Source of the DNA: Bolinopsis microptera
Taxonomy: Eukaryota > Ctenophora > Tentaculata > Lobata > Bolinopsidae
Reading direction: 5' to 3'
DNA: 64,000 nt
NCBI RefSeq assembly: GCF_026151205.1
Contig: NC_087080.1
Location: 10,525,837-10,589,836 of the forward strand
The notes beneath the pieces are model-generated. The model had not been told where the DNA came from. It did no database searches and saw only the letters and a list, made by a program, of their open reading frames with translations. Position numbers and translations under genes: made by a program. Numbering within the stretch: the stretch's first letter is position 1; each line of letters opens with the position of its first letter. Shown in pieces: positions 19,901 through 49,029 of the stretch.

Positions 19901-22900
19901 GTTAGAGATAAAAAGGGTATTGACCGGTCGTTTGCGGAATCAGAGACACCAGACATGAGCCACAATTTTTTGAAGTTGCCTTAGAAACTAAAAAGCTGAA
20001 AGAAAGACGTCATATTTCTAGAGGGGGATTTGTTTTTAGCATATTTGTAGTCCGTATATTTCTCACCTCACAGGCTATTTTCTGGCCATTCCTAATAACA
20101 TTAGGGGCGATAGCTTTAGTAGTATATGTGGCTGTGTGGGTTGTCGCATCGGATGACACTTGTACACCTGTAACCAGCTCGTAGAAAGTGGTGTCGAATG
20201 TTTTCTTTCCAGAGGTGGTGAATTTGAAGGAAGGTGCTTTTTCTCCGGTAGCGATACAGGTCAGAATGATGGTATCTCCCTTGACAGGGTCGAGTTTAGA
20301 AGAGACAAATGAGGTGATGCTGGAGATCTTGAGCATCATGTCACCAGACGTAACAGTTGCTCCGAAGAAGTTGTTTGCAGCATCAGTTTGGTAAGCGATG
20401 TTGCATCTTACTTTGAGGCCGTCTTCGTCGGACTTCAACCCGCGGAGGAAGAGGGGTGAAACCCTTATTCCATTGTTTGCTACCAATGAGCCCTCAACTT
20501 TGAACCTGAAGCAAAATTGGAATTAGTGACATTGTTCGAACTTGTGACGTGTGTTTTTTGTGCACAGTTGTTGCCAGATGTGTTCTTGGCCCTCAAGTTG
20601 GAGCAACCTATTTATAACTCATCTATACTAATGAGTCATATTTCTCGACAAGCCCCTGATAACAGACAAGATGTTAAAGTTATTGTGACTTACCGGTTGT
20701 CCTCTGTAGAGGCTTTCCATGTTGAACTAGAAGTGTCGTAGTACTCCCAGGTTATTGCAGCAGTAGCTTGCACCTTTGTCATATCTACACTCTCTAAGTA
20801 TGCATCTCCAGCAGCATTCTTCTTGAGCAGCGCATCTGATTTACAAACGAATTGTGTAGACTTTGTAACCACTCCCCACGCAGCTGAAGAGATCTCTGTG
20901 ATCCCAAGGACAGATAGGTAGACGTTGGCAGATTTCACCTCATTGGCGTCCCAAGATGCCTTGCAGTAGTACTCAATACTCTCAGCTGCCTGAGCATTGC
21001 TGATGGTCAGAACTCCAGTTGTTGTGATAACTCCGGCGTTATCTGCCTGTGTTGGAACAACAGATCCTACCACCGTATCGTCTGTTGCTTTGTGGAATGT
21101 GATTGTTCCAGCAGAGTCTCCAGTGGTCTTACAGGTGAGCTGAGCCTCACCACCCTCGGCAACATTTGTTACTTGAGGTGGTTCCGAGATGGTCCTGACT
21201 GTCAGAGTGGCTGCGGACGATTTGATGAAGATCGTTCCCCACTTTATTGTACAGAGGTACTCTCCCGCGGCGTCAACGTTTATCTGATAAAACAAGAAAT
21301 ATAATACTAATAGAGAGTTGATGAAACGAATTTACAACAATTGTAATCGATCACTGAAGTAACGAAAGTAAATGTTATCACTCTTCACATGTTTAATTAT
21401 GATATGTCTTTTTTTACTTCAATTGAAGAATACTTACATTTGCGACATTGAGGGTAGTAGAAATCTCGCCGACTGTGGCATCATCCTTAGCGATGGCTCC
21501 GTCAATAACACGTTCGCCATCCTTGTATACGTCACCGTTTCCAATCATAGGCTGTAAAGGTGTGTATGTGTTAAAAGTGCAGAAAAAGGAAAACAATTAT
21601 GTTTCGCCCTTTTATCAATATTATGATTTATCTATCGCCAAATTGTAGTATAGATTCAATGGGGTGCATTTCAGCATGTTCAGGGAATTCTGTAAGTCTG
21701 TTATGAACATTAATACCAGCAGTTTGAAAAGTAAATCGGAGTAGGAATAAAAAGTTGATAGATGTACCTTAGCAGACGATTCACCAACTCCCTTGTAGGA
21801 CCAGACGATCTCGTAGGTCTGTCCACTGAAAGGATTGGGGAATTTGCAGGAGAACTCGTGACTACCACCACCGTAGGCTGTAGCGTCTTGCGGCTCTACT
21901 ATTGGTACAGCGGCGATTATCGTCAATACCACGTCTCCTGACTCAAACTGGTTTTGGGTGGCGCAGAAGTCGTCGTACTGTGTTCCTCGGCACTTGTAGC
22001 TTCCAGCAGCGTCATCTTCAATGTCAAATTCAATCTTTGAGACTAAATCGTCGGATCCGCTTGCCTCGACCTTTACCTTTTCGTAGTCTGTGTCTTCCAC
22101 AAGTACGATATTATCCTTGAACCTAGAAAATTTTATTTTCAATATAAATGCCACGCTTTAAAGAAAATGTATTTTGTGTTGTTGATGAAACAGTAATTAC
22201 CAATTAGACACCAACACACGAGCCTCGCGTGTTGGTGTCTAAATCGCGAGGATGTCTGAAATTTGGTCCTCTGTGCCTCTACTTACCACTCGATGCTCTT
22301 AGCACCAGACGCAACAGTACACGTGAGTGTAATTGAGGATCTGACGATCAGATTTGGAGTAAGTCCTTGAGAACTTTCAATGACGGCCTCTGAAAAAAAT
22401 AGTGAGATTTAGCAACTTGTGCGGTATCAGTAAAACAAAATATGGTACGTTTCTGAGGAAGGCTTTTCGAACTCGAGTTCGAACCAAAACATTTATTGAG
22501 AATTGGAAATCCCCTCTAGTCCAATAAATCATGACAAATGAAACTGGAATAAAATAAAAGTTGTATCTTACTTCTTGCTGTGAGTCTCTGTATGGCTGAC
22601 AAGGTGCTACCATCGTTCAGCGTGAAGGTGCACGTGTAGGATCCACTTGAAGCATCAGTAATACCGGTAACTGCGTAGCTGCCAATCTGGCTGCCAGGTG
22701 TATTAGCGTCAGCTCCTGGCGCGTAAACTCCCAGCTGTCCTGCCACCACTGAGTTGTCAGGCATGGTGAAGGACACTGCAGTTACTGTGTCTACTCCAGC
22801 GTAGCTGCAGGAGAGTGTTTTGCTGGTTTCTGTCATGAAGTCCACGAAAACACATTCATCGTTTGTTACGGCAGCAGAAACCACACTCACGGAAGCCTCC

Positions 22901-25900
22901 ACGTTGTTTACATCGTCGAACTCGAAAAGGCACTTGTAGCTACCCTGGTCAACAAACTCGAAGTCTTTCAATGTTATGTTACTGAAATACTTGATGCTGT
23001 TGTCTAGCTGCTTAGTGTTGGTGTTCTGCAGTTTTGTGATGGAATCAAACACAACCTCCTCTGCTTCCTTGAACCATTTTACACTGGCTGGAACTTTGTC
23101 TCCCTCAAACATGCACCTAGCGGACAGCTCCCCATCAGACACCACGATGGTGGATTCTTCAACTCCTTTGGTGTCTATGACGGTGGCTTTCCTCACCACA
23201 ACCTCGGTTGATGTCTCCAGGTTGTCGGTGTCACTGAAGGACAGTGAACATTTGTACTCTCCAGAATTATCCTCCGGGTTCACATTGGCTATTGTCAGGA
23301 TATACTTCTGGGCATTGGCCGCTAGTGAGCCGTCATTAATCGTAATGTCATCTTCAGCATTATCAACGAGCTTTTGGTCCCCGTAGAACCATTCCATTGT
23401 GCCGCTTGTCGTGCCCTCGTAGTCACATTCTACTGTTATTGTCCCGTCTGTGCTGTATGTGGTGGCAGTGGGTGTTGTCAGCGCTGAAATTTGAAACTTG
23501 TTAACATAAAAAAGCATCAATTTTAATGAAAAGTCATCTCAAAACTAAAATTCTGTTCAGTTTTGAGATTACTAGGCTAAGTTCAACAAGGCGATTAAAA
23601 TGTTACATGATTATACCACATAATTATTACTCATAAATATTAATTATACCACATAATTATACCACTATCCTGACTTACATCTTATAGCGACAGTCATTGT
23701 AGACTGGGGATCAAATGAGGTGGTGTCCCATTTACAAGTGTAGTCTCCACTGTCAGTTACAGCCACGTTTTTGAAAGTGATCACACTAGTCTTGGACCGA
23801 GATGCAGTGTCAAATGCTCCAGTTACAATTCCGTATTTCCCTCCATCAGCGATGATATCTCCAGCTGCGTCTGTTGACCCCTGCAGTGGAATGTTTTATA
23901 TTGTGGTGTGAAACTTTTCTAAACTAGAAAACTATTTATCATTCCATGTTAATGGTCACTGTGAAGGGACTAAATAGTAATAAAAATTAGTCAGAAATCT
24001 TACCTTAAACCATTCAACTTTAGAGGGATCTTCCAAACCATTGTAGACACAAGAGAATACCACGGAGTTGTCGTGAACAAAGTACGGTGAGGATGGCACA
24101 AATGAGGCAGCTGTAGAAATTTATTATAATTAATCAAATAATCAATCAATGTTAAATCATTAATCAACCACTCCATCATATCAAGTTCAAAACCTATCAA
24201 ATTTAATTAAATTGCATCATTGGCTTAACGGATATAATGAACATCAGCAGTAGTATAATCGTACTAAAAGTCAACGTTAACTCACATAACTTGGTGAGCT
24301 GGGTCACGAGGTCCTTAGGCACATCCCCTTCATTAAAGACAACGGAACAGGTGTATGCACCCTCGTCACCGAATGTCATGGCTTTGATGGTAAGTGTGTT
24401 TGTGTACACGGCGCCCTCTGTTGTTGAGCCGATGACTATCTGAGTATTTGCGCATTATTACACTAAATTAAAATATTGGTTGTTATATAATAAAGATAGT
24501 AGATACACTAAACTAGTTTATCATATCAACAGATGGAACCAATTGGAACATACTTTATCACAGCACATGTCAAGGTTCAAGATGATAAATACCTTATCTG
24601 CTACGTTATTGATAGCTTCATTGTTTTCATCTTTCCAGGACACAGTATATGGAGATGAGTCTCCCCAAACCAAGCACACCAGTTCTCCGTCACCCGTGGA
24701 ACCTGAACTGAACGTATCAGCGGCCATTGACGCTCCAATAGCGTTTATGTCAGTTTTCGTGTCAATTTCTGCGGCGTCTTCCCCGGTCCAGGTGGCCACG
24801 CATTTGAGCTCGTTATTAAAGATCTGGTTATTAGCGGGAATTGTCAACTTGCTCTTCTTTTCTGTAGTAGAAGAACTTTCTGATGTGTCTTCAACAGTGG
24901 CAAGTTTGAAGTCGTCGTTTATTGCAGTTTCTCCTGTTGAAGTGAAAACATTACACAAAACATTGAGTAGGTATGCAATTTTTAACGATCCCACAATAGG
25001 GTAACCAATCAAGCAGACAATTTCCGAAGATACAGTATCCGATGGAAACTATTGGTAACTATGGTTACTATGGTCATGGGAACTAACCGATCTGCCAAGA
25101 AATACTGAACAGAGATTTATCCTCTCCCTGTGCTGCGCAATTAAACTCTCTTGGGAAATCACTATCAACTACTGTCGCCGAAGCAGGCAAACTTGAACTG
25201 AATTCTGCGAATAAGATGGTTAATGTAGAATAAATTAGCATATAAATCAAATAAGAAACGAGTTAGTATTGCCCCATAAAAATTATGCCTACTGCTCATT
25301 CGTTCTATGAATGTTACATTTTTATAAAAATTATAACTCAGTTTATCACATTTAATCCAAAAAGTCAAATCTACTATTTAACAAACAATCTTTCTGATAA
25401 GTTAACTGATAAATAAATCAATTATTACCTCTCTTGTATATTGTAAACGGTCCAACAGGGAAAGTGGTGGCAGATGCGTCTCCCAAAGATATAGTTCCAC
25501 TGACAACAAACGGTGCCATAGTTGCTGGGAAGGCAGCCATGACAAAGGCGAGGTTAAACACCTTCTCAGTGCCGGACCACGCTGTAGTGACACTGGGGGT
25601 TAGGTTAGGATTACTACCCGCGCTATATGTCTGCCCTCCGACAATCCATACTATCTGTGGTTCATAACGTCCATTCACTGTCAACTCCACCTTTTCAGGA
25701 CTATAGTAAAAGTCATCCAGAGCAGAAAGTACTGAAATTAAAACATGATTAACGAGTGACGCTCAAATCAAATATAAAAGAACAAAGTCATTTTAATGAT
25801 ATGCTATGTGATAGATAATAATTTCTACGATAAGTTTTCTTAAATTGATTTCAAATTGCACTGGGTATAATTATTTACCATAAAAATAAAACATCTACAA

Positions 25901-28900
25901 TAGTACTTACTGAACACGTTTACGTCGACAGGAGTCTCTTCTGATGTTTTTGCATGCTCGTCAGATGTAATGACACAGGTGAAAACAGCATCAGCCTTGT
26001 TTTCAGCAGCAGGTACGGTCAGAATTGTAGTTTGAATGTTGGTGCCAGGATCGTAAGTTCCAAGGACAATAGCATAGCTGTCAGTACCGTCAGTTATAAC
26101 ACCACCCGAACTAGGTTTGTTCCATGTTACCGCCTCCAGCTGCTTACTCAAACCACTTACTACACAAGATATTGTAGCTTGTGTGTTTGCCAGCACTTCG
26201 CTACCCTTAGCTTCTACACCTGAAACAATCAGTCATTTAAAATAAGCCCGCAATAAAAAATATCAACAGTATTGTACAGGAACTGAATCATTGAACTTTC
26301 TCAACTAATTTCACTGGATCCTATGATGAGTTTAATTTTGTTTTAACAGTAGGATGTAACAAGTTATCTTAGATATAAAGTTAAAACAGCAGAGCATCAT
26401 TTATGGGCAGTTATAAATACCCACCAAGTCCTAAGAAACTTACCGAAAGTAAGGAAGTCGACAACAATGTCTTTGAAAGTAGATGTTGCTGAATCCGGAT
26501 AGACTGCAGATACCGCAGCACATTTGTATGTCGCGGGATTTGCAGCTCCAGCTACACTTGTAAGAGTGGCAACATCAATGGTCAGAGTTGATTTCTGAAT
26601 TCCGTCACCAGCAGAGTCAGCTGTTCCCTGTGCGATGGTGTACCCTCCAGTACCACTTGTTATAGCAACCCCATCATGACCCTTCCACGACACAGCGACA
26701 TCTGCAGCCACATCTCCGATATCACAAGTCAATGTCTGAGCCACAGCGATGGTGGCTTTTTTAGGAGTCTCCGGATCGACGGCTGAAATAATTTGATTCT
26801 TTCAAACTCACAAAACATTTGGTATGTTAAAGTATCATTACATGTAGTTGTAACTAAAATAGCCTAAATTAAGAAAGATTACTGCTGCAAAATTCGAATA
26901 AGACCTCGTTATACACATTGTGGTTCTCAAAATGTATCAAGATTACTCACTGAAAACGTTCGAGTTGACAGGAGTCTCTTCTGATGTTTTTGCATGCTCG
27001 TCAGATGTAATGACACAGGTGAAAACAGCATCAGCCTTGTTTTCAGCAGCAGGTACGGTCAGAATTGTAGTTTGAATGTTGGTGCCAGGATCGTAAGTTC
27101 CAAGGACAATAGCATAGCTGTCAGTACCGTCAGTTATAACACCACCCGAACTAGGTTTGTTCCATGTTACCGCCTCCAGCTGCTTACTCAAACCACTTAC
27201 TACACAAGATATTGTAGCTTGTGTGTTTGCCAGCACTTCGCTACCCTTAGCTTCTACACCTGAAACAATCAGTCATTTAAAATAAGCCCGCAATAAAAAA
27301 TATCAACAGTATTGTACAGGAACTGAATCATTGAACTTTCTCAACTAATTTCACTGGATCCTATGATGAGTTTAATTTTGTTTTAACAGTAGGATGTAAC
27401 AAGTTATCTTAGATATAAAGTTAAAACAGCAGAGCATCATTTATGGGCAGTTATAAATACCCACCAAGTCCTAAGAAACTTACCGAAAGTAAGGAAGTCG
27501 ACAACAATGTCTTTGAAAGTAGATGTTGCTGAATCCGGATAGACTGCAGATACCGCAGCACATTTGTATGTCGCGGGATTTGCAGCTCCAGCTACACTTG
27601 TAAGAGTGGCAACATCAATGGTCAGAGTTGATTTCTGAATTCCGTCACCAGCAGAGTCAGCTGTTCCCTGTGCGATGGTGTACCCTCCAGTACCACTTGT
27701 TATAGCAACCCCATCATGACCCTTCCACGACACAGCGACATCTGCAGCCACATCTCCGATATCACAAGTCAATGTCTGAGCCACAGCGATGGTGGCTTTT
27801 TTAGGAGTCTCCGGATCGACGGCTGAAATAATTTGATTCTTTCAAACTCACAAAACATTTGGTATGTTAAAGTATCATTACATGTAGTTGTAACTAAAAT
27901 AGCCTAAATTAAGAAAGATTACTGCTGCAAAATTCGAATAAGACCTCGTTATACACATTGTGGTTCTCAAAATGTATCAAGATTACTCACTGAAAACGTT
28001 CGAGTTGACAGGAGTCTCTTCTGATGTTTTTGCATGCTCGTCAGATGTAATGACACAGGTGAAAACAGCATCAGCCTTGTTTTCAGCAGCAGGTACGGTC
28101 AGAATTGTAGTTTGAATGTTGGTGCCAGGATCGTAAGTTCCAAGGACAATAGCATAGCTGTCAGTACCGTCAGTTATAACACCACCCGAACTAGGTTTGT
28201 TCCATGTTACCGCCTCCAGCTGCTTACTCAAACCACTTACTACACAAGATATTGTAGCTTGTGTGTTTGCCAGCACTTCGCTACCCTTAGCTTCTACACC
28301 TGAAACAATCAGTCATTTAAAATAAGCCCGCAATAAAAAATATCAACAGTATTGTACAGGAACTGAATCATTGAACTTTCTCAACTAATTTCACTGGATC
28401 CTATGATGAGTTTAATTTTGTTTTAACAGTAGGATGTAACAAGTTATCTTAGATATAAAGTTAAAACAGCAGAGCATCATTTATGGGCAGTTATAAATAC
28501 CCACCAAGTCCTAAGAAACTTACCGAAAGTAAGGAAGTCGACAACAATGTCTTTGAAAGTAGATGTTGCTGAATCCGGATAGACTGCAGATACCGCAGCA
28601 CATTTGTATGTCGCGGGATTTGCAGCTCCAGCTACACTTGTAAGAGTGGCAACATCAATGGTCAGAGTTGATTTCTGAATTCCGTCACCAGCAGAGTCAG
28701 CTGTTCCCTGTGCGATGGTGTACCCTCCAGTACCACTTGTTATAGCAACCCCATCATGACCCTTCCACGACACAGCGACATCTGCAGCCACATCTCCGAT
28801 ATCACAAGTCAATGTCTGAGCCACAGCGATGGTGGCTTTTTTAGGAGTCTCCGGATCGACGGCTGAAATAATTTGATTCTTTCAAACTCACAAAACATTT

Positions 28901-31900
28901 GGTATGTTAAAGTATCATTACATGTAGTTGTAACTAAAATAGCCTAAATTAAGAAAGATTACTGCTGCAAAATTCGAATAAGACCTCGTTATACACATTG
29001 TGGTTCTCAAAATGTATCAAGATTACTCACTGAAAACGTTCGAGTTGACAGGAGTCTCTTCTGATGTTTTTGCATGCTCGTCAGATGTAATGACACAGGT
29101 GAAAACAGCATCAGCCTTGTTTTCAGCAGCAGGTACGGTCAGAATTGTAGTTTGAATGTTGGTGCCAGGATCGTAAGTTCCAAGGACAATAGCATAGCTG
29201 TCAGTACCGTCAGTTATAACACCACCCGAACTAGGTTTGTTCCATGTTACCGCCTCCAGCTGCTTACTCAAACCACTTACTACACAAGATATTGTAGCTT
29301 GTGTGTTTGCCAGCACTTCGCTACCCTTAGCTTCTACACCTGAAACAATCAGTCATTTAAAATAAGCCCGCAATAAAAAATATCAACAGTATTGTACAGG
29401 AACTGAATCATTGAACTTTCTCAACTAATTTCACTGGATCCTATGATGAGTTAACAAGTTATCTTAGATATAAAGTTAAAACAGCAGAGCATCATTTATG
29501 GGCAGTTATAAATACCCATCAAGTCCTAAGAAACTTACCGAAAGTAAGGAAGTCGACAACAATGTCTTTGAAAGTAGATGTTGCTGAATCCGGATAGACT
29601 GCAGATACCGCAGCACATTTGTATGTCGCGGGATTTGCAGCTCCAGCTACACTTGTAAGAGTGGCAACATCAATGGTCAGAGTTGATTTCTGAATTCCGT
29701 CACCAGCAGAGTCAGCTGTTCCCTGTGCGATGGTGTACCCTCCAGTACCACTTGTTATAGCAACCCCATCATGACCCTTCCACGACACAGCGACATCTGC
29801 AGCCACATCTCCGATATCACAAGTCAATGTCTGAGCCACAGCGATGGTGGCTTTTTTAGGAGTCTCCGGATCGACGGCTGAAATAATTTGATTCTTTCAA
29901 ACTCACAAAACATTTGGTATGTTAAAGTATCATTACATGTAGTTGTAACTAAAATAGCCTAAATTAAGAAAGATTACTGCTGCAAAATTCGAATAAGACC
30001 TCGTTATACACATTGTGGTTCTCAAAATGTATCAAGATTACTCACTGAAAACGTTCGAGTTGACAGGAGTCTCTTCTGATGTTTTTGCATGCTCGTCAGA
30101 TGTAATGACACAGGTGAAAACAGCATCAGCCTTGTTTTCAGCAGCAGGTACGGTCAGAATTGTAGTTTGAATGTTGGTGCCAGGATCGTAAGTTCCAAGG
30201 ACAATAGCATAGCTGTCAGTACCGTCAGTTATAACACCACCCGAACTAGGTTTGTTCCATGTTACCGCCTCCAGCTGCTTACTCAAACCACTTACTACAC
30301 AAGATATTGTAGCTTGTGTGTTTGCCAGCACTTCGCTACCCTTAGCTTCTACACCTGAAACAATCAGTCATTTAAAATAAGCCCGCAATAAAAAATATCA
30401 ACAGTATTGTACAGGAACTGAATCATTGAACTTTCTCAACTAATTTCACTGGATCCTATGATGAGTTTAATTTTGTTTTAACAGTAGGATGTAACAAGTT
30501 ATCTTAGATATAAAGTTAAAACAGCAGAGCATCATTTATGGGCAGTTATAAATACCCACCAAGTCCTAAGAAACTTACCGAAAGTAAGGAAGTCGACAAC
30601 AATGTCTTTGAAAGTAGATGTTGCTGAATCCGGATAGACTGCAGATACCGCAGCACATTTGTATGTCGCGGGATTTGCAGCTCCAGCTACACTTGTAAGA
30701 GTGGCAACATCAATGGTCAGAGTTGATTTCTGAATTCCGTCACCAGCAGAGTCAGCTGTTCCCTGTGCGATGGTGTACCCTCCAGTACCACTTGTTATAG
30801 CAACCCCATCATGACCCTTCCACGACACAGCGACATCTGCAGCCACATCTCCGATATCACAAGTCAATGTCTGAGCCACAGCGATGGTGGCTTTTTTAGG
30901 AGTCTCCGGATCGACGGCTGAAATAATTTGATTCTTTCAAACTCACAAAACATTTGGTATGTTAAAGTATCATTACATGTAGTTGTAACTAAAATAGCCT
31001 AAATTAAGAAAGATTACTGCTGCAAAATTCGAATAAGACCTCGTTATACACATTGTGGTTCTCAAAATGTATCAAGATTACTCACTGAAAACGTTCGAGT
31101 TGACAGGAGTCTCTTCTGATGTTTTTGCATGCTCGTCAGATGTAATGACACAGGTGAAAACAGCATCAGCCTTGTTTTCAGCAGCAGGTACGGTCAGAAT
31201 TGTAGTTTGAATGTTGGTGCCAGGATCGTAAGTTCCAAGGACAATAGCATAGCTGTCAGTACCGTCAGTTATAACACCACCCGAACTAGGTTTGTTCCAT
31301 GTTACCGCCTCCAGCTGCTTACTCAAACCACTTACTACACAAGATATTGTAGCTTGTGTGTTTGCCAGCACTTCGCTACCCTTAGCTTCTACACCTGAAA
31401 CAATCAGTCATTTAAAATAAGCCCGCAATAAAAAATATCAACAGTATTGTACAGGAACTGAATCATTGAACTTTCTCAACTAATTTCACTGGATCCTATG
31501 ATGAGTTTAATTTTGTTTTAACAGTAGGATGTAACAAGTTATCTTAGATATAAAGTTAAAACAGCAGAGCATCATTTATGGGCAGTTATAAATACCCACC
31601 AAGTCCTAAGAAACTTACCGAAAGTAAGGAAGTCGACAACAATGTCTTTGAAAGTAGATGTTGCTGAATCCGGATAGACTGCAGATACCGCAGCACATTT
31701 GTATGTCGCGGGATTTGCAGCTCCAGCTACACTTGTAAGAGTGGCAACATCAATGGTCAGAGTTGATTTCTGAATTCCGTCACCAGCAGAGTCAGCTGTT
31801 CCCTGTGCGATGGTGTACCCTCCAGTACCACTTGTTATAGCAACCCCATCATGACCCTTCCACGACACAGCGACATCTGCAGCCACATCTCCGATATCAC

Positions 31901-34900
31901 AAGTCAATGTCTGAGCCACAGCGATGGTGGCTTTTTTAGGAGTCTCCGGATCGACGGCTGAAATAATTTGATTCTTTCAAACTCACAAAACATTTGGTAT
32001 GTTAAAGTATCATTACATGTAGTTGTAACTAAAATAGCCTAAATTAAGAAAGATTACTGCTGCAAAATTCGAATAAGACCTCGTTATACACATTGTGGTT
32101 CTCAAAATGTATCAAGATTACTCACTGAAAACGTTCGAGTTGACAGGAGTCTCTTCTGATGTTTTTGCATGCTCGTCAGATGTAATGACACAGGTGAAAA
32201 CAGCATCAGCCTTGTTTTCAGCAGCAGGTACGGTCAGAATTGTAGTTTGAATGTTGGTGCCAGGATCGTAAGTTCCAAGGACAATAGCATAGCTGTCAGT
32301 ACCGTCAGTTATAACACCACCCGAACTAGGTTTGTTCCATGTTACCGCCTCCAGCTGCTTACTCAAACCACTTACTACACAAGATATTGTAGCTTGTGTG
32401 TTTGCCAGCACTTCGCTACCCTTAGCTTCTACACCTGAAACAATCAGTCATTTAAAATAAGCCCGCAATAAAAAATATCAACAGTATTGTACAGGAACTG
32501 AATCATTGAACTTTCTCAACTAATTTCACTGGATCCTATGATGAGTTTAATTTTGTTTTAACAGTAGGATGTAACAAGTTATCTTAGATATAAAGTTAAA
32601 ACAGCAGAGCATCATTTATGGGCAGTTATAAATACCCACCAAGTCCTAAGAAACTTACCGAAAGTAAGGAAGTCGACAACAATGTCTTTGAAAGTAGATG
32701 TTGCTGAATCCGGATAGACTGCAGATACCGCAGCACATTTGTATGTCGCGGGATTTGCAGCTCCAGCTACACTTGTAAGAGTGGCAACATCAATGGTCAG
32801 AGTTGATTTCTGAATTCCGTCACCAGCAGAGTCAGCTGTTCCCTGTGCGATGGTGTACCCTCCAGTACCACTTGTTATAGCAACCCCATCATGACCCTTC
32901 CACGACACAGCGACATCTGCAGCCACATCTCCGATATCACAAGTCAATGTCTGAGCCACAGCGATGGTGGCTTTTTTAGGAGTCTCCGGATCGACGGCTG
33001 AAATAATTTGATTCTTTCAAACTCACAAAACATTTGGTATGTTAAAGTATCATTACATGTAGTTGTAACTAAAATAGCCTAAATTAAGAAAGATTACTGC
33101 TGCAAAATTCGAATAAGACCTCGTTATACACATTGTGGTTCTCAAAATGTATCAAGATTACTCACTGAAAACGTTCGAGTTGACAGGAGTCTCTTCTGAT
33201 GTTTTTGCATGCTCGTCAGATGTAATGACACAGGTGAAAACAGCATCAGCCTTGTTTTCAGCAGCAGGTACGGTCAGAATTGTAGTTTGAATGTTGGTGC
33301 CAGGATCGTAAGTTCCAAGGACAATAGCATAGCTGTCAGTACCGTCAGTTATAACACCACCCGAACTAGGTTTGTTCCATGTTACCGCCTCCAGCTGCTT
33401 ACTCAAACCACTTACTACACAAGATATTGTAGCTTGTGTGTTTGCCAGCACTTCGCTACCCTTAGCTTCTACACCTGAAACAATCAGTCATTTAAAATAA
33501 GCCCGCAATAAAAAATATCAACAGTATTGTACAGGAACTGAATCATTGAACTTTCTCAACTAATTTCACTGGATCCTATGATGAGTTTAATTTTGTTTTA
33601 ACAGTAGGATGTAACAAGTTATCTTAGATATAAAGTTAAAACAGCAGAGCATCATTTATGGGCAGTTATAAATACCCACCAAGTCCTAAGAAACTTACCG
33701 AAAGTAAGGAAGTCGACAACAATGTCTTTGAAAGTAGATGTTGCTGAATCCGGATAGACTGCAGATACCGCAGCACATTTGTATGTCGCGGGATTTGCAG
33801 CTCCAGCTACACTTGTAAGAGTGGCAACATCAATGGTCAGAGTTGATTTCTGAATTCCGTCACCAGCAGAGTCAGCTGTTCCCTGTGCGATGGTGTACCC
33901 TCCAGTACCACTTGTTATAGCAACCCCATCATGACCCTTCCACGACACAGCGACATCTGCAGCCACATCTCCGATATCACAAGTCAATGTCTGAGCCACA
34001 GCGATGGTGGCTTTTTTAGGAGTCTCCGGATCGACGGCTGAAATAATTTGATTCTTTCAAACTCACAAAACATTTGGTATGTTAAAGTATCATTACATGT
34101 AGTTGTAACTAAAATAGCCTAAATTAAGAAAGATTACTGCTGCAAAATTCGAATAAGACCTCGTTATACACATTGTGGTTCTCAAAATGTATCAAGATTA
34201 CTCACTGAAAACGTTCGAGTTGACAGGAGTCTCTTCTGATGTTTTTGCATGCTCGTCAGATGTAATGACACAGGTGAAAACAGCATCAGCCTTGTTTTCA
34301 GCAGCAGGTACGGTCAGAATTGTAGTTTGAATGTTGGTGCCAGGATCGTAAGTTCCAAGGACAATAGCATAGCTGTCAGTACCGTCAGTTATAACACCAC
34401 CCGAACTAGGTTTGTTCCATGTTACCGCCTCCAGCTGCTTACTCAAACCACTTACTACACAAGATATTGTAGCTTGTGTGTTTGCCAGCACTTCGCTACC
34501 CTTAGCTTCTACACCTGAAACAATCAGTCATTTAAAATAAGCCCGCAATAAAAAATATCAACAGTATTGTACAGGAACTGAATCATTGAACTTTCTCAAC
34601 TAATTTCACTGGATCCTATGATGAGTTTAATTTTGTTTTAACAGTAGGATGTAACAAGTTATCTTAGATATAAAGTTAAAACAGCAGAGCATCATTTATG
34701 GGCAGTTATAAATACCCACCAAGTCCTAAGAAACTTACCGAAAGTAAGGAAGTCGACAACAATGTCTTTGAAAGTAGATGTTGCTGAATCCGGATAGACT
34801 GCAGATACCGCAGCACATTTGTATGTCGCGGGATTTGCAGCTCCAGCTACACTTGTAAGAGTGGCAACATCAATGGTCAGAGTTGATTTCTGAATTCCGT

Positions 34901-37900
34901 CACCAGCAGAGTCAGCTGTTCCCTGTGCGATGGTGTACCCTCCAGTACCACTTGTTATAGCAACCCCATCATGACCCTTCCACGACACAGCGACATCTGC
35001 AGCCACATCTCCGATATCACAAGTCAATGTCTGAGCCACAGCGATGGTGGCTTTTTTAGGAGTCTCCGGATCGACGGCTGAAATAATTTGATTCTTTCAA
35101 ACTCACAAAACATTTGGTATGTTAAAGTATCATTACATGTAGTTGTAACTAAAATAGCCTAAATTAAGAAAGATTACTGCTGCAAAATTCGAATAAGACC
35201 TCGTTATACACATTGTGGTTCTCAAAATGTATCAAGATTACTCACTGAAAACGTTCGAGTTGACAGGAGTCTCTTCTGATGTTTTTGCATGCTCGTCAGA
35301 TGTAATGACACAGGTGAAAACAGCATCAGCCTTGTTTTCAGCAGCAGGTACGGTCAGAATTGTAGTTTGAATGTTGGTGCCAGGATCGTAAGTTCCAAGG
35401 ACAATAGCATAGCTGTCAGTACCGTCAGTTATAACACCACCCGAACTAGGTTTGTTCCATGTTACCGCCTCCAGCTGCTTACTCAAACCACTTACTACAC
35501 AAGATATTGTAGCTTGTGTGTTTGCCAGCACTTCGCTACCCTTAGCTTCTACACCTGAAACAATCAGTCATTTAAAATAAGCCCGCAATAAAAAATATCA
35601 ACAGTATTGTACAGGAACTGAATCATTGAACTTTCTCAACTAATTTCACTGGATCCTATGATGAGTTTAATTTTGTTTTAACAGTAGGATGTAACAAGTT
35701 ATCTTAGATATAAAGTTAAAACAGCAGAGCATCATTTATGGGCAGTTATAAATACCCACCAAGTCCTAAGAAACTTACCGAAAGTAAGGAAGTCGACAAC
35801 AATGTCTTTGAAAGTAGATGTTGCTGAATCCGGATAGACTGCAGATACCGCAGCACATTTGTATGTCGCGGGATTTGCAGCTCCAGCTACACTTGTAAGA
35901 GTGGCAACATCAATGGTCAGAGTTGATTTCTGAATTCCGTCACCAGCAGAGTCAGCTGTTCCCTGTGCGATGGTGTACCCTCCAGTACCACTTGTTATAG
36001 CAACCCCATCATGACCCTTCCACGACACAGCGACATCTGCAGCCACATCTCCGATATCACAAGTCAATGTCTGAGCCACAGCGATGGTGGCTTTTTTAGG
36101 AGTCTCCGGATCGACGGCTGAAATAATTTGATTCTTTCAAACTCACAAAACATTTGGTATGTTAAAGTATCATTACATGTAGTTGTAACTAAAATAGCCT
36201 AAATTAAGAAAGATTACTGCTGCAAAATTCGAATAAGACCTCGTTATACACATTGTGGTTCTCAAAATGTATCAAGATTACTCACTGAAAACGTTCGAGT
36301 TGACAGGAGTCTCTTCTGATGTTTTTGCATGCTCGTCAGATGTAATGACACAGGTGAAAACAGCATCAGCCTTGTTTTCAGCAGCAGGTACGGTCAGAAT
36401 TGTAGTTTGAATGTTGGTGCCAGGATCGTAAGTTCCAAGGACAATAGCATAGCTGTCAGTACCGTCAGTTATAACACCACCCGAACTAGGTTTGTTCCAT
36501 GTTACCGCCTCCAGCTGCTTACTCAAACCACTTACTACACAAGATATTGTAGCTTGTGTGTTTGCCAGCACTTCGCTACCCTTAGCTTCTACACCTGAAA
36601 CAATCAGTCATTTAAAATAAGCCCGCAATAAAAAATATCAACAGTATTGTACAGGAACTGAATCATTGAACTTTCTCAACTAATTTCACTGGATCCTATG
36701 ATGAGTTTAATTTTGTTTTAACAGTAGGATGTAACAAGTTATCTTAGATATAAAGTTAAAACAGCAGAGCATCATTTATGGGCAGTTATAAATACCCACC
36801 AAGTCCTAAGAAACTTACCGAAAGTAAGGAAGTCGACAACAATGTCTTTGAAAGTAGATGTTGCTGAATCCGGATAGACTGCAGATACCGCAGCACATTT
36901 GTATGTCGCGGGATTTGCAGCTCCAGCTACACTTGTAAGAGTGGCAACATCAATGGTCAGAGTTGATTTCTGAATTCCGTCACCAGCAGAGTCAGCTGTT
37001 CCCTGTGCGATGGTGTACCCTCCAGTACCACTTGTTATAGCAACCCCATCATGACCCTTCCACGACACAGCGACATCTGCAGCCACATCTCCGATATCAC
37101 AAGTCAATGTCTGAGCCACAGCGATGGTGGCTTTTTTAGGAGTCTCCGGATCGACGGCTGAAATAATTTGATTCTTTCAAACTCACAAAACATTTGGTAT
37201 GTTAAAGTATCATTACATGTAGTTGTAACTAAAATAGCCTAAATTAAGAAAGATTACTGCTGCAAAATTGTCTGCTGTATTTTATGGGTATATTAGTTAA
37301 ATCAAGAGAGTTTTTAAAATAGGACCACTGTAGGATAAAGGACCAATTTCTGGCGATAATGATTTTTTAAATGGTGGTCTCACGTGGTTGAGGATATTTT
37401 TATTATACATTACAAATTATTCACACAGCCTTACTTTTGCACTGTCGAAATTACTAGATTTATCACTTCTTTAAATTGGCGGAATCTTGTCAGTAAATTG
37501 ATAAACTTACTGAAAATATTCAATATAACCGGAGTTTCCAAACTCTGTACACCACGAGTTACGGCACATTTATAACTTGAATCAGCGGTGTTAATTCCAT
37601 TTTTGACAGTGAGTGTTGTGGTCTGAGATTTTGTTGCTCCGATGTAATCCCCCTCCACCACTTCGTAGTCTGTCATCAAGGCTGTTATGGTTTCACCTGT
37701 TCCTTTCTTCCAAGTAACAGTAGTCAGTTTTTCGAGTAAACCGGTTACATCGCAAGATATAACTACTTGAGATGCAGACAATACTTCCTTGTTGCCGGCA
37801 GTTGTTTCTGAAATGATGGAAAACATGTTTTAATCATAACACAGAATGATATTGTTAAATTGCCAAACTAATGTTTAATATTGAATACATTCGGCATTCC

Positions 37901-40900
37901 AACTTTAACAGTTTCAAAGTTGATATACTTATAGCAAAAATGTGCCCTGCCCAAGCAGCTGAGATGGTTACTACGATTATTATAGTTACTATGATACACT
38001 TTAAGAGCATGAGACGTCTGGTTTTCTACTAGTGAAGGCAATTTCAAAATTTGAAGAATGAGCACCAGTACGATACAGATCGCAAAATAGGGGAGGTAGT
38101 TCTTTCAATGTTTTGATCGTGTAGCATTAATTTCTCAGAGACATAATGCAAGGATCTAGCAAGGTTACAAACGTTGGACAAGAAAAATCTGTACGCGGTT
38201 GATAAGCGGTTAGTAAGCGGTTAGTAAGCGGTTAGTAAGCGGTTAGTAAGCGGTTGATAAGCAGTTAGTAAGCGGTTAGTAAGCGGTTAGTAAGCGGTTA
38301 GTAAGCAGTTAGCGGAACAAATCCCTAAGGCTTTACAGTACGGACAGGGCTAGGGTTTCGGGTTGGGTTAGAACAATCAACAAAAGGTGTTTCACTGAAA
38401 TATAAATATCTTTCTCACCGATAACCTCAAGAGCCATGACTCCAGATATCCCGATAGTTAAATCATAGCACTCGATATGGTCGCTGGTATCAGTGGCCGT
38501 TGGTGAACTCAAAGTTAGGGTGCTTTTTCTGGTTCCACTTCCAGTGTCATATGCCTCCTGTACACCAGTGAGTGCATCGAATTTTGGGGTCTCTGCGGAC
38601 CAATCAGCGGCTCTCTTTTGCCACAGTATATTAACAGTATTATCAGCTGTTGCAACACAGGAGAGAATGACAGATGTTGCAGCAAATGTTCGCACTGTCT
38701 CTGCCGAGCTGGTTACAATCTCTGTGGATAGAATGCGGTTAAGACGCAACTTAAAATTTATTGAGGTGATCACAAAAAAATTAAAATTCTCCTAAATTTA
38801 TTAAATGAACTTGGATGCTTATTTAATCATTTAACTATTTAACAAATTGCGAAACGAAATAATTGTTTACTGTATTGCGAACTTATTTCAAGGTATATCT
38901 ACGAAAGTTAAAGTGAAAATCATTGAAAAAACAAAATAGTTAAGATTTTCGAAAGTGTATTTCTAACGTTCTTAATTATTGCCGTTCAAAATTATATCCA
39001 CTCACACAAATAACTTCCGCTAAAAAATTAATTTAAAAAAAGAAAAGAAAAAAGGAAGGTGAAGTGCTGCGATAATTCGCTACAGTGTTAATGAGGATAA
39101 AAGTATTTCGGACGAGAAAGACACATAAAACATAATCGGCAGGCAAAAGTAAATGTTAAAATGATACTTACTGTTCATTGTAATGGTTGTTGTACTTTCA
39201 AGGTTAGTTCCAGCAGCAAGGCCAGTGTAAGTAGCAATGCACTTGTAAACGCTTGCGTCGTTGGCAGAGGAGATGGTGATGGGGAGAGTACTAGAAACCG
39301 AAGAGCTGTCTCCAGCAACCACATCTGCATTAGCTGTCTCAGTGGCAGCGGAGTTTCCTACCATCCACGAGAAAGTCGGAGCAGTGATGTCTGCATGGGA
39401 CTCTGCAACACAAACCAGGTTGGCGCTACTTGCGGAGTTGCCTCTAGTTGGGGTGACCAGAGGTGTGGATATGGAGAACACAGTCAGGGTGGTTGATGTT
39501 GGACTGAACTCCGTTACACTCTTTCTGCACGTGAAAGTGCCCGCTTTGTTTGCTGCGTCAACTGTTATCGCATACTCAGCTTTTGTCTTCCCATCTACGT
39601 ATGTTGTGGATGTTGCAGCAAGATCTTGGGAGCCATCGTGGAATCCAAGGACAAGTTGATCGGGGGAGGTAACTTGGCAGGTGAGTGTGACAGAAACTCC
39701 GGATCCGTAGGTGCTGTAAAGAGCAGCAGGGCTTACCATCTCTACCAGGTTCAAGTTCACATTGGAGAAGACACCTTCAGGTACTGTCGATGTCCCGTCG
39801 GCAAAGGCAAAGGTACATTTGTATTCGCCACTCGTGGCTGAATTTGCCAGGGAGAGGATGAAAATATTTGCATCGCTTGGGTCATTACTGTACAGTGAGG
39901 CGTCTATTGCGCCATCCGGACCTGTCCATGAAATGCTAGTCTGTACATCGCTGGCATCGAGAGTACAGCTCAACTTTAATCCCAAGTTAGCATAACTGTA
40001 GACATCAGCATCTGCTGGGGTCTTGGTGACAAGTCTTACAACTAATGCTCCTTCGGAATGGTAATTCTCAGTGGCAGATACAACAAACATGCACCGATAA
40101 TTTCCGGCGTTTGCTGTTGTGATACCGGCCGTTTTTATTGTTAATGTTGTCTTGAAGAGCCCGTTAGTGATGGAAGACTCGGTTTCTACGTCGTATGGGT
40201 CGGTGTCAGCAATTGGTGTACTGCCAGTATCAACGTAGTCCTTGTACCTGAAGAGAGAGAGAGAATCGTTTTAGTCATAACATTGAATGACATTATATGA
40301 TGATTATGCTGATTGGAACCAGTAAGTAAACCATCCTGCTTGAATTATTGGAACATCTCTTTTAAGAACATGCTACACAGTGATTGAATATAAAATATTT
40401 GCATACCAAGCAGTAGAGGTAGGTACCGCACCATCAGAACCCACACCCAGGGAGCACTCCATCGTGACGGCAGCCCCGATTGAGTAGTATTTGGTATTCA
40501 GTCCGGCGTTCAGACCTGAAAATAACAGCTTGAGAAACTAAATTTAAACGTTTAAATTATTGATCAAAATGTGAGTGCACTACACGGGGTATTAAGCCGT
40601 ACAATATTTCTATGTTTGTTAATATTAAGAAGTTTTTGAGATTCTGAGTCAAGAAGAATGATATCCTTCCAATGTATATAAAAATTCAATCAGTTATCTT
40701 ATCAAACCAACCTCTGAACTTTAGGACTGTATTTGCAGTAAGTTCCGCTGTAGGGTTGGTGAATGAGTACTTGCAGACAATTGCTTTGCTGGCATCAGAG
40801 TAGGTTCGTCCCGATATGGTGAGCTCATCAGACCTGAATTATCAGGTTTATAACTCTTTATAACAAACAAACCTGAATTAGTATAACTGTACTCGTCAAC

Positions 40901-43900
40901 GGTACCCACACGAACAATCTAACAGATTACGCAATACGCTGCTAAGGATAAAATGTTGTACCTTTCATTTGTTCCGGTATTCAAAGTTCCTGGAGTAATG
41001 GTTATTCCATCATCAGAGTCCGAAACAATTGCACCAGCTACAGTCCAGGATACAGATGGGTCGTCTGTTCCCTTGTAGTTACAAGTTATGGTGTGCGAGG
41101 CGTCGCTGGAGACTTCCTCTGCGGCCAAAGCGTCGACAGCTACAATGTAAGCGTGAATTTTAGGAAAAAAGTTAATAAAAGTAAACATGCAGTTAAGGAT
41201 TTTGATTGAATTTACTTGTTTTAGCTCACGACCTAAAACACTGAGAATGATACTTCTTCAAACAATGATGATATAAATTAACATTGTTTGTATCAACTTA
41301 CATCGAACCCTGAAGTTAGTGGTGGATGTGATGTCATCACCAGTTCCTGAGAAGGAGTAAGCACACTTGAGCACTCCTCCGCTGGATTTTATGATCGGGT
41401 TCAATGTTAAAACAGATTCCCACTTCTTGCTTCCAGTAACGTAACTTCCCTGAAGTATGTGAAATCGTAATAGGATGATTAAAAATAAAAATTAATAAAA
41501 AAAAACCATGTAACTACTCCCGCTATCCGCGGAAATAAAAGGGATAAGACATGATTAAACTTATATCGTAAAGGACCTTAACAGAAAGTTTAATACAGAG
41601 TAAAACTTATTTCTAACCTCAGTAATAGTATATCCAGCAGGCAGAGCTGCATCGTTATAAGTCCACGTGACACCATCCACAGCACTGTCTCCGTGATACT
41701 CACAAGTGAATGTTTGGGATCCCCCGAGAGCAGTGACAGCTGTATACTCGTCCAGCGACTTGGATAGCTCTGAGATGGTTTTAGCATTTAATTTCATGTA
41801 TTTTGGTTGTCTGGATAGAGTGGAGAGGGGGTACAATATTTATTGGTTAAAGATACTTCGCCACTTTGTCGTATGTAATCCATATTCCATAATATGCTCT
41901 CTTGTGTTTATTCCGATATTATATACCATGTCAATGTATTGATTTTATTGAATGATTTGTTTATTGCTTAAACAAGTAGGCTAACCTCGGATGTAGAGAG
42001 TTGCAGTTGTGCTTTCTCTAGTAAGGGTCGCATCTCCGATAGCGTACACAGCCTCGCATTTGTAAACACCCGCATTGGCCATGGTGGCACTGAAAAGTTG
42101 TACATTAAAATTAAAATTTCAGAGAAACGCCCTGATGATAACACAGGCCATGGTGTTCTTAACTCCTTACAATTTATTATGATGTTGTCACAACTCACAT
42201 GATATAAGATACTATACTGTGGTGAATTAGAGGATTATTGTTCTTCTGAGTCAATAGGAGAAAAGTCATCCACGATGCACCAGACAAATTACGCAATTTA
42301 TTACTCTGTTCAATGAAAGTAACTTAAATGTGACGGTCAAACTCACGATGAGAGTGTCAAAGTGGATGTTCCAGGGTTAGCGTTATCAAAGTTGATGAGG
42401 GACACGTCCATAGCGGTGCTGGTTCCATCCACAACCTTGTACCAGCTGAGACTGGTGGTGGCACTATCTGGGTTCTTAACCGTACAGGACAGTTCAGCGT
42501 CCTCCCCAACAAGATGGGCAACATCAGTAGGGTTTATTGTTATACCAATATCTGTGGGAAAGGAAACTGTTACGGATCAATTCATATAACCAACTGAACG
42601 CATATAACGAGTATTTACTGAATCAGAAGAGGCTAACAGAGCGATTGGAGATCAAGTTGGTGGGAGAACCAATGAAATCTTCAAAGAGGATAAGTTGACA
42701 TTTTCAAAAATAATTAGTATCATCTTCCATATAGTTTTAGTATAGCAGAAGAAGCAAAATCCCTACCATAAACAGCAATGGTAGCAGTGGCACTCTCAAC
42801 AGTAGTTCCTCCAAAGTCGGCTGTGCACTTATACACTCCACTATCGGCCTCTGCTGCAGTGGCGATTGTAAGGGTGCTCGTCGTTTTCGGGTCAGCGTAG
42901 GTATCTATATCACCAGACACGGGAGATGCATCTTTTGTCCTGATTGGATTTAAAGTAAGCTTTTGTGTAATGTTGACTTTGGTTGAAAACAAAATTGGGG
43001 CGAGCTAAAGAGCTGATTGTCACAGGCGAGGAGCATGAAAGAAACGAATCGGGTAAAAGGCATTATATTATAGTTATTGTGGATAAAACTCTATACATAA
43101 TCAGTATCACAGAGAATGCCTGGAATATCTTACCATGTGATGGTAGCTTGTACGTCTCCAACAACCACGCAACTGATTTCAAGTTGAGATCCTAGGTTAA
43201 CATTGGTATCAACTGGGTCAGTTTCAAATCCTCTGACTGTAACATCAATGGTTCCAACCAGGGATACTGCATTAGAACCGTCACTGTGGGAGTATTCGGC
43301 AGTGCATGTATAGGCTCCTGCATCAGCTAGTGCCAGGGTGGACAAGGATAGAACGCTGGTGTAGGCAGAGTCGGAGGTGGAGGTCGTAATTCCGGACGTT
43401 ATCTGAAGGGTGAGGAGGGGTGATGAGGGGGCAAGGGGGGTAAGGGGGGTAAGGGGGGTAAGGGGGGTAAGGGGGGTAAGGGGGGTAAGGGGGGTAAGGG
43501 GGGTAAGGGGGGTAAGGGGGGTAAGGGGGTAAGGGGGGGGTGAGGAAATAAGTGTGTAGCCCATTTTGGTCTGTACTCTGTACAAGGGACATTGGGGTAA
43601 CTCGTTCATTTTTAGCAATTAGCCTCTTCGTGTCGATCATCAATCCCTATTGCATAGCTTTTTAAACAATTAATTAAAGTAAAAATAAAAAGTGTACTAA
43701 CATCGGCGCCTCCGTCTAATTTCCAGGTTACTGCTCGTGTTACGAAAGTTTCATCCAGATTCATCGCACAGGACAGTTGAGCACTTGCTGCCGCCAACAG
43801 GATTTGGGCGGAGTCAGGTGTCACGACGAGACCTAGAAAAGTGTAAATTTAGATAACTTTAACATTCAGGGATATCACCATCACGTGGTAACATGTATTT

Positions 43901-47744: not shown

Positions 47745-48868
47745 TACGTCGCCAGCAATGAGGCAGAGAGGAGAAGTAGCCAGCAATGAGACAGGGAGGA
47801 GAAGTAGCCAGTAATGAGGCAGAGAGGAGAAGTAGCCAGTAATGAGACAGGGAGGAGAAGTTGCCAGCAATGAGACAGAGAGGAGAAGTAGCCAGCAATG
47901 AGGCAGAGAGGAGAAGTAGCCAGCAATGAGGCAGAGAGGAGAAGTAGCCAGTAATGAGACAGGGAGGAGAAGTTGCCAGCAATGAGACAGAGAGGAGAAG
48001 TAGCCAGCAATGAGGCAGAGAGGAGAAGTAGCCAGCAATGAGGCAGAGAGGAGAAGTAGCCAGTAATGAGGCAGAGAGGAGAAGTAGCCAGCAATGAGGC
48101 AGAGAGGAGAAGTAGCCAGCAATGAGGCAGAGAGGAGAAGTAGCCAGTAATGAGGCAGAGAGGAGAAGTAGCCAGCAATGAGGCAGAGAGGAGAAGTAGC
48201 CAGCAATGAGGCAGAGAGGAGAAGTAGCCAGCAATGAGGCAGAGAGGAGATGTTGCCAGCAATGAGGCAGAGAGGAGAAGTTGCCAGCAATGAGACAGGG
48301 AGGAGAAGTTGCCAGTAATGAGGCAGAGAGGAGAAGTAGCCAGCAATGAGACAGGGAGGAGAAGTAGCCAGTAATGAGGCAGAGAGGAGAAGTAGCCAGT
48401 AATGAGGCAGAGAGGAGAAGTTGCCAGCAATGAGGCAGAGAGGAGAAGTAGCCAGCAATGAGGCAGAGAGGAGAAGTAGCCAGCAATGAGGCAGAGAGGA
48501 GAAGTAGCCAGCAATGAGGCAGAGAGGAGAAGTTGCCAGCAATGAGACAGGGAGGAGAAGTAGCCAGTAATGAGGCAGAGAGGAGAAGTTGCCAGCAATG
48601 AGACAGGGAGGAGAAGTAGCCAGTAATGAGGCAGAGAGGAGAAGTTGCCAGCAATGAGGCAGAGAGGAGAAGTTGCCAGCAATGAGGCAGAGAGGAGAAG
48701 TTGCCAGCAATGAGGCAGATAGGAGAAGTTGCCAGCAATGAGACAGGGAGGAGAAGTAGCCAGCAATGAGACAGGGAGGAGAAGTTGCCAGCAATGAGAC
48801 AGGGAGGAGAAGTAGCCAGCAATGAGGCAGAGAGGAGAAGTAGCCAGCAATGAGGCAGAGAGGAGAAG
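47745..48868. repeat. 28-bp minisatellite, about 40 copies
   Basis: The unit is GCCAGCAATGAGGCAGAGAG followed by GAGAAGTA. Variants combine CAGC/CAGT, GGCAGAG/GACAGGG and GTA/GTT at fixed positions, and the variant units are interspersed in patterns suggesting block duplications. Because 28 is not a multiple of 3, all three minus-strand frames stay open for more than 360 codons; this is an artefact. Confidence 0.95.
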
Positions 48869-49029
48869 TCTCCCTTCATGATTAAATAGCTTTGCCTACC
48901 CTGACAATATTTTCCAAAGAGCTATTAGTAATTTATGCCTCTAAGGCTATTTTGTACCCAGGATGCCAGATAATGTGGCAAAATGCTTCAATTTTTCAAA
49001 GGTTTTCCAGAAGCTCCGCTCCCAGGCCC

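What the first reader, a model, noticed from the sequence alone, without database searches (positions are those of the whole stretch)
25927..37269. Homogenised 11-copy exon-pair array encoding 22 Ig domains
Seen: eleven 1,040-bp units, each two Ig exons and two introns, appear identical by eye including the introns, while Ig domains outside the array are strongly diverged. Both exons are phase 1-1, so any number of units keeps the reading frame. Inferred: very recent unequal-crossover expansion or ongoing gene conversion, giving a receptor whose length varies between alleles, as apolipoprotein(a) kringle-IV-2 does. An assembly artefact from collapsed or over-expanded repeats must be excluded.
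Basis: partly seen in the sequence, partly recalled or inferred. Interest (0 to 1): 0.88.

Follow-up and report, generated by a model that had tools for sequence, protein, structure and literature searches.

The report
Shared, fast-evolving Ig repeats in ctenophore
A probable comb-jelly gene carries 22 immunoglobulin domains in a row, built from one almost unchanging pair, and the same pair recurs in similar genes on several chromosomes, kept uniform inside many of them but changing fast between them, which is how recognition molecules under pressure to keep changing tend to evolve.

Summary
The array is real in this assembly: eleven units (1,040-bp period) at 25927-37269, minus strand, each with two one-exon Ig-like domains (309 and 339 bp, phase 1-1). 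Nine full units and the 968-bp end unit are identical; one unit has a 25-bp deletion and one substitution. The genome looks like a ctenophore near Mnemiopsis, probably Bolinopsis microptera (inferred). Arrays of the same exon pair, 2 to about 28 pairs long and several of them homogenised, occur on C1, C3, C4, C7, C9 and C10. They sit in at least two frameworks: short-tailed transmembrane (window, C7, C9_9.77) and sushi-ZP (C10, C1, C3). The window's units are sister to a unit of the ZP-type gene on C10 (support 100/99), so units move between chromosomes. Across seven related genes dN exceeds dS in 19 of 21 pairs and intron divergence in 21; omega is near 2 by profile (likelihood ratio 13), while the neighbouring Ig exon is little changed. 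More distant genes give dN/dS below 1. Best reading: concerted evolution within genes, exchange and diversifying selection between genes, as in Podospora NWD repeats. A recognition role is inferred; allele length and exact copy number are untested.

The parts
25927..37269 (-). tandem array of 11 exon-pair units (nine of 1,040 bp, one of 1,015 bp, last 968 bp)
25911..26219 (-). last (11th) exon A, 309 bp, phase 1-1; its final 16 bp lie outside the repeat and differ
26444..26782 (-). exon B, 339 bp, phase 1-1 (repeated identically 11 times up to 36819-37157)
29047..30061 (-). the one variant unit: 25-bp deletion in the B-A intron and 1 substitution
26268..26439 (-). 172-bp stretch of the B-A intron that also occurs inside a dispersed repeat (five copies read, on C2 twice, C4, C10, C11; others on C3 and C11 seen as matches only)
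46417..46452 (-). probable first coding exon, signal-peptide-like (MKQHILLLVWIA)
   Evidence: splice phases of the next exons not resolved
44752..45040 (-). Cys-rich exon, Ephrin_rec_like (TNFR-like), with an RKKR furin-like site near its start
44465..44638 (-). short Cys-rich exon, sushi-like by eye only (no Pfam match)
38419..44324 (-). diverged N-terminal Ig region (several Ig domains, some split over two exons)
37511..37807 (-). diverged A-like Ig exon just before the array (43% to exon A)
20072..25731 (-). diverged C-terminal Ig region
17739..19647 (-). Cys-rich membrane-near exons (19543-19647, 19053-19198, 18109-18235, 17739-17922), no Pfam family above cut-off; the last one has relatives downstream of the C7, C9_9.77 and C9_8.52 arrays
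17520..17599 (-). exon completing an RRRR furin-like site
17163..17262 (-). transmembrane helix exon
16901..16940 (-). last coding exon: short cytoplasmic tail MKQKRSEDLEAL and stop

Best explanation
The array is one member of a dispersed family of Ig exon-pair arrays in a probable ctenophore. Three forces act on it. (1) Shown by pattern: inside many of the genes, unequal crossing-over or gene conversion keeps the units nearly identical and sets their number. (2) Shown by tree and by flanks: units are now and then copied between genes on different chromosomes, even between a transmembrane framework and a ZP-domain framework; the window array appears to come from one unit type shared with the ZP-type gene on C10, followed by amplification. 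(3) Shown by dN/dS and exon-against-intron contrasts among the closer genes: selection favours amino-acid change between genes, with the densest variation in the C'-C''-D segment of both Ig domains. Inferred: the encoded giant surface protein shows many copies of one gene-specific Ig surface, giving high-avidity recognition, and a new variant can sweep the whole array. The likely role is recognition under conflict (gamete, self/non-self, or microbes) rather than a fixed structural role.
For: Homogenisation. Same exon pair in arrays on C1, C3, C4, C7, C9, C10. Incongruence: the window's flanking exons match the C7 gene, in order and on both sides of the array, at 43-71% aa, while its units are sister to a unit of the ZP-type gene on C10 (100/99) and far from C7. 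The transmembrane label needs at least 3 changes, the ZP label 4, on starred branches. Selection: in 21 pairs of 7 genes dN exceeds dS in 19 and exceeds intron divergence in 21; window against C1_1.16 gives dN 0.133, dS 0.040, introns 0.013. GY codon model: lnL -1970.28 free, -1976.81 at omega 1, -1970.32 at omega 2. Control: the Ig exon next to the array in five ZP-type genes has dN 0.004-0.049 and dS 0.012-0.082 (10 pairs). C'-C''-D: 41 of 65 columns variable, pN/pS 2.75 (B) and 2.01 (A). Frameworks.
Against: No expression, allele or protein data. Pairs with C7, C10_14.5 and C4 show dN/dS of 0.21-0.79, and the mean over all between-gene pairs is 0.63 (A) and 0.53 (B). Nonsynonymous against synonymous alone is below 0.05 in 7 of 21 pairs, and pairs share branches. 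In the control exon dN slightly exceeds dS in 2 of 10 pairs. The highest regional pN/pS ratios lie outside C'-C''-D, in exon A segments with almost no synonymous change. Silent exon sites are more diverged than introns in 21 of 21 pairs, so imported exon blocks or intron constraint contribute. Units of C9_3.66 differ by 6-9%: homogenisation is not universal. Six B copies (four in C7) and two A copies failed an open-frame test: decay, bad bounds or assembly error. Recombination violates the single tree of the codon model. The assembly method can distort repeats.
Confidence: 0.62

Rival explanations
1. Assembly artefact: a few diverged units were over-copied or smoothed to identity by the long-read assembler and short-read polishing.
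For: The published B. microptera genome used wtdbg on PacBio reads, gap closing and pilon. Ten of 11 units without a difference, and 28 exon A matches mostly at 950-bp steps on C4, are what such smoothing could give. Some C7 B exons are out of frame.
Against: The same assembly keeps about 1-2% differences between units in C1_1.16 and 6-9% in C9_3.66. The variant unit with a deletion is kept. The between-gene results do not depend on within-array identity.
Confidence: 0.15
2. Structural protein: a titin-like or adhesive spring whose repeats are kept uniform for mechanical reasons; no recognition.
For: Long uniform Ig arrays; ZP module pieces in the C10 gene and its ZP-C exon beside four more arrays; short tail without a recognised signalling domain.
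Against: Amino-acid change in excess of silent change between the closer genes, densest in one segment of the domain, is not expected for a spring.
Confidence: 0.2
3. No diversifying selection: introns are held constant by a splicing constraint, so exons only look fast.
For: Array introns (1-6%) are below the exon silent divergence in 21 of 21 pairs, and those of the ZP-type genes are mostly below their flanking introns.
Against: dN also exceeds dS inside the exons in 19 of 21 pairs and omega 1 fits worse by a likelihood ratio of 13; introns of C7 and C10_14.5 differ by 11-19% from the window, so they are free to change.
Confidence: 0.12
4. Dscam-like: the exons are alternatives chosen by splicing rather than all joined.
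For: Phase 1-1 exons in tandem would permit it.
Against: The B exons are identical and 10 of 11 A exons are too, so choice would create almost no diversity.
Confidence: 0.05

Closest known systems
Podospora anserina NWD/HNWD genes (het-d, het-e, het-r)
   Same: Repeats near-identical, exchanged within and between loci of a family of 10, selected codons in each repeat, repeat-number instability (abstract and passages of PMC1805685 and PMC2873952).
   Different: WD40 repeats on a NACHT-type fungal protein; here Ig exon pairs with introns on extracellular animal proteins; function unknown.
Abalone VERL
   Same: About 22 tandem repeats with an Ig-superfamily-like fold in a giant extracellular protein, with positive selection (passages of PMC3567151 and PMC8830517).
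   Different: VERL repeats are ZP-N domains, and positive selection is reported for its two N-terminal repeats; here it is seen between genes, and the window gene itself has no ZP match.
Apolipoprotein(a) kringle-IV-2 (recalled)
   Same: Tandem exon-pair units that keep frame; copy number expected to vary.
   Different: One gene, different domain, no family of dispersed arrays.
Snake venom gene families (recalled)
   Same: Exons more diverged than introns between paralogues.
   Different: Whole small genes, not internal arrays.
Hydractinia Alr and arthropod Dscam (recalled)
   Same: Ig-based recognition proteins with fast or many variants.
   Different: No homogenised identical exon arrays, as far as I recall.

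Membership tests
Immunoglobulin superfamily | Ig domain detected by profile above cut-off | tested here: inconclusive
   exon A best Ig_3/ig E 0.0019, below cut-off; exon B no Ig match; 3 of 6 flanking pieces and 2 of 5 above an Ig cut-off
Immunoglobulin superfamily | Cys(B)-Trp(C)-Cys(F) pattern | tested here: met
   first Cys and Trp invariant in the alignments of window Ig exons; second Cys present in both array exons
Podospora NWD-type (works like) | repeats homogenised within genes | tested here: met
   (window, C9_9.77, C7, C3_10.75, C1_1.16; not C9_3.66)
Podospora NWD-type (works like) | repeat exchange between unlinked family members | tested here: met
Podospora NWD-type (works like) | diversifying selection on repeat codons | tested here: met
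   among the seven closer genes; not among distant genes
Podospora NWD-type (works like) | repeat number differs between individuals and sets recognition specificity | not testable with these tools
   one assembly only
Podospora NWD family (membership) | WD40 repeats and NACHT domain | tested here: not met
   above cut-off, Pfam gives only Ig families and Ephrin_rec_like for the pieces of this gene scanned
VERL / ZP egg-coat proteins | ZP module at the C-terminus | tested here: not met
   window gene no ZP match; pieces of the paralogue on C10 do match ZP-N and ZP-C
VERL / ZP egg-coat proteins | expression in the egg coat | not testable with these tools
   no expression data
Dscam-type alternative exons | alternative exons differ in sequence | tested here: not met
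   B exons identical in 11 of 11

The most novel reading that the evidence does not exclude
Ctenophores have an independent germline recognition repertoire built from Ig exon cassettes: units spread between unlinked genes on two kinds of protein framework, are amplified and homogenised into multivalent arrays, and are driven to differ by selection, perhaps for gamete or self/non-self recognition in a hermaphrodite.
Probability: 0.35. Interest if true: 0.92.

Novelty: new variant of a known kind. Interest (0 to 1): 0.77.

Why it matters
It joins three processes, rarely seen together, in one Ig gene family of a lineage often placed as sister to all other animals. If confirmed, it gives direct candidates for recognition molecules in ctenophores. 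It would make a question testable with long reads and crosses: do hermaphroditic ctenophores discriminate self from non-self gametes or tissue? M. leidyi spawning alone gave a lower percentage of developed eggs than pairs (passages of PMC4811168).

Tried and rejected
Nematostella was my first guess for the host; a STING family search found nothing but also rang in no control, so it is no evidence. The host was placed by ionotropic glutamate receptors. For one receptor (L010) the best PDB match is Mnemiopsis ML032222a; for another (L014) kainate receptor 2 scored slightly better than ML032222a. The best genome match to the ML032222a fragment is 80%. Size fits B. microptera (265 Mb in print), but the paper's table gives 346 scaffolds against 232 contigs here.

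I took the 172-bp intron stretch for a small transposon; it is part of the intron in 9 array regions (window included), has a diverged match in C10_16.77, was not found in C7 and C10_14.5, and also lies in a larger dispersed repeat; origin unresolved. A ZP domain at the window gene's own C-terminus was suspected and not found. ZP-N searched six-frame gave 6 matches, none at the arrays, although the C10 pieces match ZP-N: exon splitting probably hides it. The ZP-C family search did not complete. A splice scan for flank exons of C10 returned nothing and was replaced by a search with the exon peptide.

Rows dropped: one search left out 8 exon copies without an open frame or with bad bounds (2 A, 6 B) and merged identical ones. 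The 7-gene set takes the commonest open exon per gene from 7 of 11 array regions (window included) and leaves out C7 and C10_14.5 (distant), C1_1.26 (exon A broken by a simple repeat) and C3_10.54 (near-duplicate of C3_10.75); for C4 only early units were used. C10_16.77 gave no exon match and was not analysed further. The tree used 72 units, 53 distinct, none from C1_1.26.
Full report
What is there. The array at 25927-37269 is real in this assembly. Lag analysis and BLAST give a 1,040-bp period. Nine full units are identical, the last unit (968 bp) is identical over its length, and one unit (29047-30061) carries a 25-bp deletion and one substitution. On the minus strand each unit holds exon B (339 bp) and exon A (309 bp), both phase 1-1 with AG...GT borders, all 22 open. 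B is identical in 11 of 11; A has two versions, because the repeat boundary lies 16 bp inside the last A exon. Ig exons around the array are 21-43% identical to exon A and 23-27% to exon B. Pfam gives exon A weak, sub-threshold Ig matches and exon B none; 3 of 6 flanking Ig pieces and 2 of 5 pass an Ig cut-off.

The gene. A signal-peptide-like exon (46417-46452), an Ephrin_rec_like Cys-rich exon behind an RKKR site, further Ig exons, the array, more Ig exons, Cys-rich exons, an RRRR site, one transmembrane helix (17163-17262) and a 12-residue tail ending at 16901 suggest a type I membrane protein. Splice phases of the second to fifth N-terminal exons do not fit together in my hand model, so that part is provisional. 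The short tail shows no known signalling domain.

The host. The genome has 264,652,675 bases in 232 contigs. One of its single-exon glutamate receptors has Mnemiopsis ML032222a as best PDB match, another has kainate receptor 2 slightly ahead; the best genome match to the ML032222a fragment is 80%. B. microptera is reported at 265 Mb, 346 scaffolds, 13 chromosomes (PMC11797021 and PMC10232365, passages). The species name is an inference.

A family of arrays. A DNA search with one unit gave 104 matches, many of them in arrays on C1, C3, C4, C7, C9 and C10. Protein searches, each listing at most 150 scored matches, add an array at C4:3.526-3.552 Mb with 28 exon A matches mostly at 950-bp steps (one with stops inside), five exon A matches at C9:8.52 Mb, and 32 listed, diverged (44-53%) A-like exons on C5. 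I fetched 10 array regions besides the window, and C10_16.77, which has diverged DNA matches but gave no exon match. Mean within-array divergence ranges from zero (window exon B) to about 17% (C4 exon B, a composite array). Window, C9_9.77, C7, C3_10.75 and C1_1.16 are homogenised; C9_3.66 (6-9%) is not, and the two units of C10_16.83 differ by 9% in exon B. Six B copies (four in C7) and two A copies failed the open-frame filter.

Two frameworks. The window's flanking exons match the C7 gene on both sides of the array, in order, at 43-71% amino-acid identity, and two 3' ORFs of C9_9.77 at 55-58%. A C-terminal exon of the window has 14 other matches in the genome; three lie 9-18 kb downstream of the arrays of C7, C9_9.77 and C9_8.52, the other 11 not near an array I know of. 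By contrast C10_16.83, C1_1.16, C1_1.26, C3_10.54 and C3_10.75 share another 3' part. Exon pieces of the C10 gene match Sushi, ZP-N and ZP-C above cut-off, and its ZP-C exon has 17 matches, five of them downstream of exactly these five arrays at 96-100%. On its 5' side C9_3.66 resembles C9_9.77 (60 and 84%); I did not establish the full framework of C9_3.66, C4_9.22, C10_14.5 or C4:3.5 Mb.

Exchange between genes. In a tree of 53 distinct units the window's three unit types form a clade with one of the two units of the ZP-type gene on C10 (100/99); the other C10 unit lies outside that clade, its own place being weakly supported. The C4 array holds units of two distant lineages, one next to C7 and one next to C3. 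On well-supported branches the transmembrane label needs at least three changes and the ZP label four. In four ORFs after the array C7 and C9_9.77 are 91-96% identical, yet their units differ by about 15-21%. Gene duplication alone does not explain this easily; transfer of units by ectopic recombination or conversion does.

Selection. For seven genes with recently shared units, dN exceeds dS in 19 of 21 pairs and exceeds intron divergence in 21 of 21; nonsynonymous against silent (synonymous plus intron) is below 0.05 in 18 of 21 one-sided Fisher tests, nonsynonymous against synonymous alone in 7 of 21. Pairs share branches, so the single test is the codon model: free lnL -1970.28, omega 1 best -1976.81, omega 2 -1970.32 (fixed runs with kappa on a grid; the free omega itself was not printed). 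The adjacent Ig exon of five ZP-type genes gives dN 0.004-0.049 and dS 0.012-0.082, with dN above dS in 2 of 10 pairs, and the sequence around it is mostly as diverged as the exon or more so. Within the array domains the C'-C''-D segment has 21 of 32 (B) and 20 of 33 (A) variable columns, the highest pN, and pN/pS of 2.75 and 2.01; higher ratios in two other exon A segments rest on very few synonymous changes. Against this: pairs with C7, C10_14.5 and C4 give 0.21-0.79, and over all pairs dN/dS averages 0.63 and 0.53 between genes (0.63 and 0.60 within). Silent exon sites are more diverged than introns in 21 of 21 pairs, so imported exon blocks or intron constraint add to the contrast.

Interpretation. 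Shown: within-gene homogenisation in several genes, dispersed arrays, unit-framework incongruence, accelerated amino-acid change between the closer genes. Inferred: the mechanism of transfer, multivalent display, and a recognition function. The closest known behaviour is that of the Podospora NWD repeats, then abalone VERL (passages). It is a member of neither. The main open risks are copy number and perfect identity, because of the assembly method, and function, because there are no expression or population data.

Noticed in passing
window 61138-64000: 335-bp satellite, 8.5 copies at 99%, running off the window edge.
   Followed up: no
window 13134-15254: 25/12-bp satellite with strong G over C skew.
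   Followed up: no
window 47751-48869: 28-bp minisatellite, 40 copies at 93%, about 1.3 kb upstream of the gene's probable first coding exon.
   Followed up: no
window 7608-10040: 810-aa ORF on the plus strand with a reverse transcriptase match and a weak, sub-threshold GIY-YIG match, Penelope-like.
   Followed up: partly
window 10288-12666: Plus-strand exons with thrombospondin-like patterns and a membrane-like helix, by eye; no Pfam match for the one piece scanned.
   Followed up: partly
window 26268-26439; L040-L044: A 172-bp stretch of the array intron also sits inside a dispersed repeat on several chromosomes; source or capture unknown.
   Followed up: partly
G000:C4:3526370-3552335: 28 exon A matches, mostly with the same score and at 950-bp steps, the longest such array seen; sequence not fetched.
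   Followed up: no
G000:C5:15999813-16047255: Long run of A-like exons (32 listed) at 44-53% identity, apparently not homogenised: a natural contrast.
   Followed up: no
L027 (C1_1.26): Exon A split by an in-frame simple repeat coding Gly-Ala-Asp-Gly.
   Followed up: no
L028-L029 (C4_9.22): One array made of two unit lineages, one akin to C3, one to C7.
   Followed up: partly
L034-L036 (C7_10.77): Four B exons of the C7 array failed the open-frame filter; decay or assembly error not told apart.
   Followed up: no
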